DNA from: Caldilineaceae bacterium SB0661_bin_34
GTDB taxonomy: Bacteria > Chloroflexota > Anaerolineae > Caldilineales > Caldilineaceae
Direction: 5' to 3'
Assembly (NCBI GenBank): GCA_009841145.1
Contig: VXMJ01000026.1
Coordinates: 124,001 to 188,000 of the forward strand
DNA: 64,000 nucleotides
Position numbers and translations under genes: made by a program. Each line of letters begins with the position of its first letter. Position 1 is the first letter of the stretch. A model generated the notes under the pieces. That model was not told where the DNA came from. It saw nothing but the letters and a program-made list of their open reading frames with translations, and searched no databases. Positions 51,120 to 53,188 of this stretch are shown here, one piece after another.

Positions 51120-52094
51120 CTAGTCCATGATCTCCTGCACCGTTTGCAGGAGGGTTTCGGCCTTCAGTGCCGGCAGGTTGTAGCACTGGGCGTGCAGACT
51201 GTCTGCCAAGGTCTGAGCCAGGCCCCGGTCAAAGGCGGAATGTTCCATGTTCACTACTACGGACTTGATTTCGGAGTGGACATAAAGTTCCGCAATCTTC
51301 AACGCTTCCTCCTGCGCCGGCTGTCCGGTCATGCTGACATTGCCGGCACCGTCCGTCAGCAGAATCATCATGGGCTGGGTCTCTGGTTCGCGGCGGCGCA
51401 CGTTTTCGAATACACGCCAGGCCACATACAAGCCGCTGCTAAGGGGGGTCTTGCCACCCACGGGTAGATCAACCAGTGCCTTCTGTGCCAATTCGACGCT
51501 GCTTGTTGGCGGCAGCACGATACGCGCCCTGTCGCGCTGGAAAACCACCAACCCTACCTGGTCGCGCCGTTGGTAGGCGTCCACCAGCAAACTGAAGATG
51601 GCCCCCTTGGTGGCTTCCATGCGTTCGCTGGCTGCCATTGACCAACTGGCGTCCACAACGAACAAAATCAGGTTGCCGGTGCGTCTGACCCGAATCTTGC
51701 GGTGCAGATCGGTCATCTTCAGCTGGAGCGCAAGACTGTTGTGGATGTCGGCTGCGCGTCTGCGCTTCTGATGCGGCGCTGCCGCTCTCAGTGTGGCATC
51801 AAACGCAAGATCCTCAGGGCGATCCCCGGCCGGAACCGCCCGAATGTACCGGCCTCGTTTCCGGTTGGTACGGGAATACGAACGCTTGCCTGCCTTCTCC
51901 CGGGTCACCCTGTCCAGCGGCGAGGTGACCTTCTGCATGTCAAACTGCTCTCCGACCTCCACCCGTTTCTGGGTGCCGGCCTTGTCTCCGGACGACGAAC
52001 TCTGGGGTTGACTGTCATCGGGCTGAAGGTAGTTGCCTTCGCCTTCCTGCTGTTCGTCAACTACGCCCGAGTCATCGTCCGTTTCACTTTTTTT
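51120..52094 (-). CDS. VWA (ChlD-like) part of chelatase gene, reached by frameshift
   Basis: A -1-frame continuation of the upstream ATPase frame. It opens immediately after a TGA that abuts the A8 run (52088-52095) and encodes an acidic, Gln/Ser-rich linker (SETDDDSGVVDEQQEGEG and on), then a von Willebrand A domain with the MIDAS DxSxS (LFVVDASWSMAASERM) and the later Asp (ILLTDGAGN). The linker-VWA order is exactly what follows the AAA+ domain in the putative cobaltochelatase/ChlD family. The only in-frame start-type codon nearby is a GTG at 51962, which would discard the linker. I infer that this is translated as a fusion of about 689 residues. Confidence 0.82.
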   Translation of the reverse strand, partial: KKSETDDDSGVVDEQQEGEGNYLQPDDSQPQSSSSGDKAGTQKRVEVGEQFDMQKVTSPLDRVTREKAGKRSYSRTNRKRGRYIRAVPAGDRPEDLAFDATLRAAAPHQKRRRAADIHNSLALQLKMTDLHRKIRVRRTGNLILFVVDASWSMAASERMEATKGAIFSLLVDAYQRRDQVGLVVFQRDRARIVLPPTSSVELAQKALVDLPVGGKTPLSSGLYVAWRVFENVRRREPETQPMMILLTDGAGNVSMTGQPAQEEALKIAELYVHSEIKSVVVNMEHSAFDRGLAQTLADSLHAQCYNLPALKAETLLQTVQEIMD

Positions 52095-53188
52095 TCATCG
52101 ACGGACTGTGTCCCTTCAACATCTTCGGTCGCCTGTTCGTCGCTGTCGACCATCTGTTGGGCCTGAGCTTCCGCCTCCTCCAAATTCTTCTGCAGATGGT
52201 CCGGATGCAGTCCCGCCTCCATGAAGGGTTGTTTCTTCATGCGATGCGGAAGCGCCAATTCGGCGGCGTAGTGGATGTCGCGAGTGGTGATCTGCCGGCG
52301 ACCCTCAAATGCCGCCTGTGCACACGCCGTCTTGAGGATTACGATGTCGGCCCTGTGTCCGTCCACGCCGAAGTTGGTGGTCAGCGCAGCTATCGTGTAC
52401 AGGTCCCGGTCGGTGTACTCCACTTCGTGGTAGCTCCGGCGAGCAGTGATGACCTGTTCGCCAAGCGACGTTTCCCTTTCCTTCCACTCGGACACGAAGC
52501 CGTCCGGGTCCAGGTCGTACTCCAGCCGACGCTGGAGTATGGCGACCCGTTCCTCGGCGTCCTCAATGCCGGTCACATCCACGGCATGGGCAAACCGATC
52601 CAATAACTGGGGCCGCAGGTCACCCTCCTCAGGGTTCATGGAACCGATCAGGACAAAACGCGAGGGGTGCTGCACGCTGATTCCTTCGCGCTCCACCGTG
52701 TTCACTCCCATGGCCGCGGAATCCAGCAGCAGGTCAACCACGTGGTCATCCAGCAGATTCACTTCGTCGACGTACAGGATCCCCCGGTTGGCGGCAGCCA
52801 GCACCCCCGGTTCGAAATGCTTTTGGCCTTCCTGGATGGCCTTCTCGATGTCCAGGGTGCCCACGACGCGATCTTCGGTCGCACTCACCGGCAGATCCAC
52901 AAAGGCGGTGGTTTTTTCAACCGTGGGCGCCGATGCCACGTCCGTTAGTTCACGGCACTGGAAGCAAAGTTGATCGGGCCGCTCTGGATTGCAACTGAAA
53001 GGACAGTCGGCCACGGCCGTGATGGGGGGCAGCAACGCGGCCAGGCCACGCGCGGCCGTAGATTTGGCCGTGCCGCGTTCGCCCCGGATTAGGACACCGC
53101 CAATCTGCGGATTGATGGCGTTCAGAATCAGGGCCCGTTTCATGCGGTCCTGACCGACAATGGCCGTTAAGGGATAGGTGGTGTGCAT
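52061..53188 (-). CDS. Mg/Co-chelatase-type AAA+ ATPase subunit (short product)
   Basis: The zero-frame product from ATG 53188 is a 375-residue ChlI/BchI-like AAA+ ATPase that would power metal insertion into a tetrapyrrole. Walker A is RGERGTAKSTAARGLAAL, Walker B ILYVDEVNLLDDHVVDLLL, and the ISMNPEEG-like sensor is GSMNPEEGDLRPQLLDRF. A four-cysteine insert (CPFSCNPERPDQLCFQC) is typical of the putative cobaltochelatase group. It ends 9 codons after the A8 run at TAG 52061. The frame is open to 53425, but MHTTYPLTAIVGQDRM is the family start. No cobN or bchH large subunit is in the window. Confidence 0.9.
   Translation of the reverse strand: MHTTYPLTAIVGQDRMKRALILNAINPQIGGVLIRGERGTAKSTAARGLAALLPPITAVADCPFSCNPERPDQLCFQCRELTDVASAPTVEKTTAFVDLPVSATEDRVVGTLDIEKAIQEGQKHFEPGVLAAANRGILYVDEVNLLDDHVVDLLLDSAAMGVNTVEREGISVQHPSRFVLIGSMNPEEGDLRPQLLDRFAHAVDVTGIEDAEERVAILQRRLEYDLDPDGFVSEWKERETSLGEQVITARRSYHEVEYTDRDLYTIAALTTNFGVDGHRADIVILKTACAQAAFEGRRQITTRDIHYAAELALPHRMKKQPFMEAGLHPDHLQKNLEEAEAQAQQMVDSDEQATEDVEGTQSVDEKKVKRTMTRA
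52088..52095 (-). promoter_or_regulatory. A8 slippery run, candidate frameshift or slippage site
   Basis: The minus strand reads GAT GAA AAA AAA GTG in the ATPase frame. A -1 slip on A-AAA-AAA, or one extra A from polymerase slippage, gives GAA AAA AAA AGT and joins the VWA frame. The VWA frame is closed by TGA directly upstream of the run and the ATPase frame is closed by TAG 25 nt beyond it, so the overlap is confined to about 35 nt around this run. Confidence 0.75.

What the first reader, a model, noticed from the sequence alone, without database searches (positions are those of the whole stretch)
51120..53188. Single chelatase gene that may yield two proteins by frameshift at an A8 run
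The AAA+ frame stops at TAG 52061, but the -1 frame opens exactly at the A8 run (a TGA abuts it) and runs through an acidic linker and a complete VWA domain. Joined, they give about 689 residues, the size and order of the AAA+/VWA chelatase medium subunit; unjoined, the first frame gives a ChlI-like 375-residue subunit. Programmed frameshifting in chlD-type genes that supplies both subunits has been described in the literature, as I recall it; this looks like such a case, here with a plain A8 site. Ribosomal -1 slippage on A-AAA-AAA and transcriptional slippage would both work.
Basis: partly seen in the sequence, partly recalled or inferred. Interest (0 to 1): 0.72.

Follow-up and report, generated by a model that had tools for sequence, protein, structure and literature searches.

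The report
Frameshifted chlD gene making two subunits
One bacterial gene carries a run of eight A's at which the reading frame slips, so it very probably makes both a short and a long form of a metal-chelatase motor protein; this trick is already published for this gene family, and this is a well-conserved new example.

Summary
On the minus strand a 375-aa AAA+ ORF (53188-52061, TAG) contains GAA AAA AAA G. The -1 frame, open from that A8 run, encodes an acidic linker and VWA domain to 51120 (367 + 322 = 689 aa). The halves match consecutive parts of TIGR02442, putative cobaltochelatase.

It is not an error: in 33 of 33 same-family orthologues the A8, its phase and the -1 layout are the same, one of them a single-contig genome. 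Of 122 informative loci 102 are split, 101 of them -1, at A7-A10. The linker evolves as protein in the VWA frame and has no common start before about codon 60, so a separate VWA gene is very unlikely. Phase and constant direction favour ribosomal slippage; polymerase slippage is not excluded.

It is a new member of a known kind, "fs-chlD" (PMC3711429, PMC9227772). This genome lacks CobN/ChlH, so the client is unknown. Possibly new: 14 of 20 continuous-ORF relatives keep A7-A10 at the junction with a -1 stop within 9 codons, suggesting a reversed, dnaX-like layout giving the same two proteins.

The parts
52061..53188 (-). Zero-frame ORF: AAA+ ATPase, ChlI/BchI-like, 375 aa, ending at TAG 52061; the short (small-subunit) product
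   Evidence: nearest solved chains are ChlI/BchI, E 7e-100 to 2e-97; Walker A GERGTAKS and Walker B YVDE are my reading of the sequence
52088..52095 (-). A8 slippery run, zero-frame phase GAA AAA AAA G (contains A_AAA_AAA)
   Evidence: identical in 33 of 33 family orthologues
52095..52097 (-). TGA in the -1 frame abutting the run, so the -1 frame opens only at the run
51120..52088 (-). -1 frame: acidic linker plus VWA domain, 322 residues and stop TAG; C-terminal part of the 689-residue long product
   Evidence: TIGR02442 positions 355-640 of 641; VWA_2, VWA
51963..52088 (-). Linker upstream of the first possible VWA-frame start (GTG 51962); conserved as protein in the family
53195..53199 (-). 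GGAAG, Shine-Dalgarno-like, 6 nt before ATG 53188
   Evidence: read; inference

Best explanation
This is a frameshifted chlD (fs-chlD) gene that makes two proteins by slippage at the A8 run. Ribosomes that stay in frame stop at TAG 52061 and make a 375-aa AAA+ subunit (ChlI/CobS role). A fraction slip back one base on A_AAA_AAA and continue through the acidic linker and VWA domain, making a 689-aa medium subunit (ChlD/CobT role). One gene thus supplies both kinds of AAA+ subunit in a set ratio. Shown by sequence comparison: the layout, its conservation, and translation of the linker without a common start of its own. Inferred: that the slippage is ribosomal rather than by RNA polymerase (about 0.75 against 0.2), its efficiency, and assembly of the two products. 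As the genome has no CobN/ChlH and no CbiC match, the motor probably does not serve B12 or chlorophyll synthesis here; I infer an unknown metal-insertion or remodelling client. The confidence given is for two products by slippage at this run, of either kind.
For: Both halves match consecutive parts of one family, TIGR02442 1-355 and 355-640 of 641. 33 of 33 family orthologues: A8, phase GAA AAA AAA, VWA in -1. 101 of 102 split loci, among 122 informative ones, are -1 with A7-A10; the short ORF is 346-384 aa, counted from the tblastn match start. Linker codons 10-41 in genus g9 (8 loci): 17 variable sites, all third positions, 0 of 213 pairwise codon differences nonsynonymous in the VWA frame. 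No common start before about codon 60. Ribosomal rather than transcriptional: A7 runs always have the phase XXA AAA AAA needed for tandem slippage, 11 of 11 split and 3 of 3 continuous, and the direction is constant, the criterion for ribosomal shifting in PMC3711429 section 10. Published E. coli reporters of chelatase cassettes gave 10% (A7), 40% (A9) and 63% (A11) (PMC3711429 passage). No other close ChlI-like protein in this genome: next hit E 3.7e-4.
Against: No protein, ribosome-profiling or reporter data for this gene. No conserved downstream RNA structure: consensus energy -0.2 kcal/mol and no compensatory pair over 32 of the 33 family sequences (L016 left out); the window's own 92 nt fold is only z -1.40. 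A8 is within the range where RNA polymerase may slip. The 11 A7 split loci form only 4 clusters at 75% identity, so the phase argument rests on few independent cases. One split locus (L107, A9) is +1. In a more mixed set of ten family loci, linker codons 10-41 vary at all three positions (11, 8, 28; 304 of 820 codon differences nonsynonymous), and codons 0-9 show weaker protein selection.
Confidence: 0.9

Rival explanations
1. Transcriptional slippage: RNA polymerase adds one A in the run, and ordinary translation of the A9 mRNA gives the long protein. Same two products, different step (this is the other share of the 0.9 above).
For: Homopolymers of eight or longer are described as typical sites (PMC3711429 passage), and Thermus dnaX uses nine. 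48 of the 101 -1 split loci have A9, in all three phases, and 3 have A10. Of ten continuous relatives with A9-A10, eight have a +1 stop within 3 codons as well as a -1 stop within 9, like the stops in both frames of Thermus dnaX. The one +1 locus, L107, has A9.
Against: The direction is -1 in 101 of 102 split loci; A7 loci, short for polymerase slippage, all have the ribosomal phase.
Confidence: 0.2
2. Two separate genes: the VWA protein has its own start inside the linker (for example GTG 51962 or ATG 51938) or is reached by reinitiation after TAG.
For: GTG and ATG exist at VWA-frame codons 42 and 50, and a GGAGG-like stretch lies before the ATG. A start-type codon at codon 60 or 61 is seen in 31 of 33 loci. 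PMC3711429 mentions evidence of downstream initiation in some of its constructs, not said to be this family (passage).
Against: Before codon 60 the possible starts differ between relatives, and the linker there is conserved as protein; the run and its phase would have no reason to be kept in 33 of 33. Codon 60 or 61 lies after the conserved linker, is lacking in L011, and for L014 the four-entry list does not show it.
Confidence: 0.03
3. Pseudogene or assembly error at a homopolymer.
For: Homopolymers are error-prone; the genome is a 102-contig draft.
Against: The same A8 in the assemblies of 33 family genomes, one of them a single contig; both halves look intact and the VWA half is under purifying selection.
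Confidence: 0.01

Closest known systems
fs-chlD genes (Antonov et al. 2013, PMC3711429; Antonov 2020, known here only through citations; Kuznetsov et al. 2022, PMC9227772)
   Same: AAA+ ORF overlapping a -1 VWA ORF at a poly-A run; short and long products; Chloroflexi members named (Herpetosiphon in the first; Brevefilum, Anaerolinea and other Anaerolineaceae in the third)
   Different: Nothing essential. Here A8 in one fixed phase throughout the family; no conserved 3' RNA structure found, whereas the 2022 paper says the signals usually include one
Kuznetsov 2022 'stage 1' genotype: fs-chlD without large subunit or the B12 and chlorophyll pathways
   Same: This genome: fs-chlD, no CobN/ChlH match, no CbiC match
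   Different: Only one B12 marker was tested here; some same-family relatives do have CobN
dnaX (tau/gamma) frameshifting
   Same: One gene, two nested products, A-run; both layouts are reported (long in zero frame, or long by shift), per passages of PMC3711429 and PMC5009743
   Different: Unrelated protein; the 2013 paper's dnaX signal has two stimulators beside the slippery site, and no conserved structure was found here
Mg-chelatase ChlI/ChlD and cobaltochelatase CobS/CobT
   Same: Domains and their order
   Different: Separate genes there, one gene here; the large subunit is missing in this genome

Membership tests
fs-chlD (frameshifted chlD) | N-terminal AAA+ ChlI-like part and C-terminal VWA part in order, matching one ChlD-type family | tested here: met
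   TIGR02442 1-355 then 355-640 (each half alone is below the whole-protein cut-off of 779 bits)
fs-chlD (frameshifted chlD) | The two parts in different frames, overlapping at a slippery run, shift -1 | tested here: met
fs-chlD (frameshifted chlD) | Slippery run conserved among orthologues | tested here: met
   33 of 33 in the family; 101 of 102 split loci -1 with A7-A10
fs-chlD (frameshifted chlD) | Stimulatory downstream RNA structure (usual, per PMC9227772) | tested here: inconclusive
   none conserved over 32 of 33 sequences; own fold z -1.40; L014 and L015 have strong stems
fs-chlD (frameshifted chlD) | Both products made in vivo | not testable with these tools
   needs proteomics or reporters
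Cobaltochelatase / Mg-chelatase (working enzyme) | Large subunit CobN or ChlH in the genome | tested here: not met
   PF02514: 0 matches in the own genome, 98% complete; control genomes rang in 5 of 14
Cobaltochelatase (working enzyme) | Corrin pathway present (one marker, CbiC) | tested here: not met
   PF02570: 0 matches; controls rang in 7 of 14; other B12 and chlorophyll genes not searched
Ribosomal -1 frameshifting | X_XXY_YYZ heptamer in zero-frame phase | tested here: met
   GA[A AAA AAA] G
Transcriptional slippage | mRNA heterogeneity at the run | not testable with these tools
   needs cDNA

The most novel reading that the evidence does not exclude
In Chloroflexota the chlD gene is a two-product gene in either frame layout. 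Where the ORF is continuous, the A7-A10 run and a -1 stop within 9 codons are kept (14 of the 16 continuous Chloroflexota genes seen), so slippage yields the short subunit instead of the long one. The layout has switched repeatedly while both products were preserved, A7-A8 genes using ribosomal and A9-A10 genes partly transcriptional slippage; and the motor mostly works without any CobN/ChlH, on an unknown client.
Probability: 0.45. Interest if true: 0.55.

Novelty: new member of a known kind. Interest (0 to 1): 0.35.

Why it matters
The gene itself adds a further Chloroflexota lineage to a published recoding family, with clean selection evidence. The wider value: such genes were annotated as two adjacent genes (PMC3711429 passage), and genomes with one recoded chelatase motor and no CobN/ChlH match (44 of the 55 sampled genomes that have this orthologue; many are drafts) are good systems for finding what the motor does without a large subunit, which PMC9227772 calls unexplored.

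Tried and rejected
Separate VWA gene, pseudogene and assembly error: rejected (see rivals). Conserved stimulatory stem-loop: not found in the family alignment, although L014 and L015 have a strong stem about 7 nt after the run (z about -4 against mononucleotide shuffles). Conserved neighbour genes that would hint at a client: among ORFs of 120 aa or more in 83 loci, and in the 25 largest clusters printed, the window's neighbours recur in at most 3 loci; the largest neighbour cluster is in 17 loci and not in the window. Run length alone as evidence: weak, 0.5 expected per window. The product of chance values (1.4e-10, near -1 stops in continuous genes) uses a threshold chosen after seeing the data; I rely on the combined test instead (p 1.5e-4 for 14 genes, 2.4e-4 for 11 after thinning near relatives; remaining relatedness not corrected).

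Full report
WHAT IS THERE. The gene lies on the minus strand. ATG 53188 opens a 375-codon AAA+ frame ending at TAG 52061. Its end reads GAT GAA AAA AAA GTG AAA CGG ACG ATG ACT CGG GCG TAG. The run of eight A's is at 52095-52088. In the -1 frame a TGA abuts the run, and after it the frame is open for 322 residues to TAG 51120. The AAA+ part matches TIGR02442 (putative cobaltochelatase) positions 1-355 with E 1.4e-151, and the other frame positions 355-640 of 641 with E 8.4e-82. Each half is under that family's cut-off of 779 bits, as expected for half a protein. Pfam gives AAA lid and Mg_chelatase for the first and VWA for the second. The nearest solved structures of the first part are ChlI/BchI.

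CONSERVATION OF THE SITE. The window is in a 4.34-Mb, 98% complete draft genome. One same-family genome (G004, L011) shares its first 900 bases of the gene with the named record L071, Caldilineaceae bacterium 354-166; another (G010, L025) with L074, Anaerolineales bacterium UBA5069. So the window is Chloroflexota, Anaerolineae, probably Caldilineaceae or near it; this is inference. Of 61 genomes (own included), 57 have a match at E 1e-20 or better. In two of those (G020, G040) the best match is a distant paralogue (53% and 38%), leaving 55 genomes with the orthologue. Within the family 33 of 37 genomes have it (G014, G025, G030 no match, G020 paralogue only), and in 33 of 33 the run is A8, the zero-frame phase is GAA AAA AAA and the VWA frame is -1. 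Only the best match per genome was examined; a second, 70% identical copy in G027 was not. These three codons take no synonymous form in the 33, whereas upstream in the same genes GAA is 52% of Glu and AAA 40% of Lys codons, and a conserved Lys-Lys elsewhere is AAGAAG in 19, mixed in 11 and AAAAAA in 3.

WIDER SAMPLE. Two were duplicates, two had a broken AAA+ frame (L055, L111), nine had no VWA part within reach (two of these, L142 and L148, have one more than 1 kb away); 122 were informative. 102 are split: 101 are -1 and one is +1 (L107, A9). All 101 have A7-A10: A7 11, A8 39, A9 48, A10 3. The short ORF, counted from the tblastn match start, is 346-384 aa. A7 runs are always in phase XXA AAA AAA (11 of 11, in 4 clusters at 75% identity). 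The other 20 are continuous ORFs.

THE LINKER IS TRANSLATED AND HAS NO COMMON START OF ITS OWN. In the VWA frame the peptide right after the run is similar across the family, most clearly outside the window's genus (roughly S.EGD[DE]S, then GEGG, then PDA[SA]PQQSSSPGD.KGARKPV), while the first possible start codon differs from species to species (codon 1 to 61). The window's genus has a diverged linker that is nearly constant among its four members. A start-type codon at 60 or 61 is seen in 31 of 33 loci; it lies after the conserved linker, is lacking in L011, and is not shown for L014. Codon variation was counted in four sets holding 27 of the 33 loci. Codons 10-41: genus g9 (8 loci), 17 variable sites, all third positions, 0 of 213 codon differences nonsynonymous; g7 (5 loci), 10 of 11 sites at position 3, 8 of 55 nonsynonymous; own genus (4 loci), 1 site, position 3; a mixed set of 10 loci, sites 11, 8 and 28 at positions 1, 2 and 3, 304 of 820 nonsynonymous (37%, against 91-93% in the other two frames). 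Codons 0-9, where the frames overlap: g9, 3 sites, all position 3, 16 of 39 nonsynonymous in the VWA frame and 39 of 39 in the zero frame, but also 16 of 39 in the third frame; mixed set, 152 of 234 nonsynonymous. So selection for the VWA frame is strong after the overlap and weaker within it.

WHICH KIND OF SLIPPAGE. Constant -1 direction is the criterion used in PMC3711429 (section 10, read) for ribosomal shifting, and the A7 phase is the one needed for tandem slippage of two lysine tRNAs. Against a simple picture: no conserved downstream structure over 32 of 33 sequences, a modest own fold, and A9 runs in all three phases, which fits either mechanism. I put ribosomal slippage at about 0.75 and transcriptional at about 0.2.

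FUNCTION. This genome has no PF02514 (CobN/ChlH) and no PF02570 (CbiC) match, and no second close ChlI-like protein. Among the 55 genomes with the orthologue, 11 have CobN over the cut-off and 44 do not (two of these, G016 and G042, have a weak match under it); among the 37 of the 55 that are at least 90% complete and at most 5% contaminated, 7 do. In some relatives a ChlI-like paralogue sits beside CobN (for example G017 contig 5), while the orthologue of our gene lies on another contig. So the motor is retained largely independently of a large subunit and its client is unknown. It may serve CobN in family members such as G031 that have CobN and no other ChlI-like match at E 1e-20.

RELATION TO THE LITERATURE. 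PMC3711429 (passages, section 10) reports a -1 Mg-chelatase cluster of 23 genes from six genera including Herpetosiphon (Chloroflexota) and measured 10%, 40% and 63% frameshifting for A7, A9 and A11 cassettes in E. coli. PMC9227772 (parts 1-3 of 4 read) describes fs-chlD in Chloroflexi, including species without the large subunit or the pathways. PMC5009743 (passages) reviews it. Antonov 2020 was not held. The finding is therefore a new member of a known kind.

A POSSIBLE EXTENSION. Of the 20 continuous ORFs, 14 keep A7-A10 at the same junction, and it is the only run of seven or more A's in those genes. All 14 have a -1 stop 0-9 codons after the run, giving a short product of 354-375 aa counted from the match start. 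All 14 are in Chloroflexota; of the six without a junction run, four are Myxococcota or Methanosarcina (L132, L134, L139, L144) and two are Anaerolineae (L043, L046). Against the genes' own off-frame stop spacing the near -1 stops are modestly unlikely by chance (combined p 1.5e-4; 2.4e-4 thinned). A9-A10 genes also tend to have near +1 stops (p 0.006), A7-A8 genes do not (p 0.72, only four genes). Split and continuous layouts change at least 14 times on a quick AAA+ tree, but starred branches force only 3, and the tree carries long-branch warnings. L043 and L046 lie in genomes with no other ChlI-like match at E 1e-20, which counts against a universal two-product rule. PMC3711429 treated continuous chelatase ORFs as fusions (passage). 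I found no statement of the reversed layout for chelatase in what I read of these papers or in the listings of the searches; Antonov 2020 could hold it.

Noticed in passing
L039, L040, L042, L045, L048, L049, L050, L059, L080, L109, L124, L126, L135, L143: Continuous-ORF relatives keep an A7-A10 run at the junction and a near -1 stop, suggesting a reversed, dnaX-like two-product layout.
   Followed up: yes
L107: Split gene with A9 but the VWA part in the +1 frame, the only one of 102; a real change, transcriptional slippage or assembly error.
   Followed up: no
L043, L046: Continuous ORFs without a run and no other ChlI-like match at E 1e-20 in the genome (G053, G044); how a small subunit would be made is unclear.
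   Followed up: partly
G017 contig 5, 21728-26362: ChlI-like paralogue directly beside a CobN gene, separate from the recoded gene; similar in G008 and G039.
   Followed up: partly
window 48004-49984, + strand: MobA-like protein followed by two XdhC-like ORFs (109 and 282 aa); names are my reading of the translations, not searched.
   Followed up: no
window 53389-54674, + strand: Divergent neighbour: ECF sigma-factor-like ORF and a possible anti-sigma ORF; my reading, not searched.
   Followed up: no
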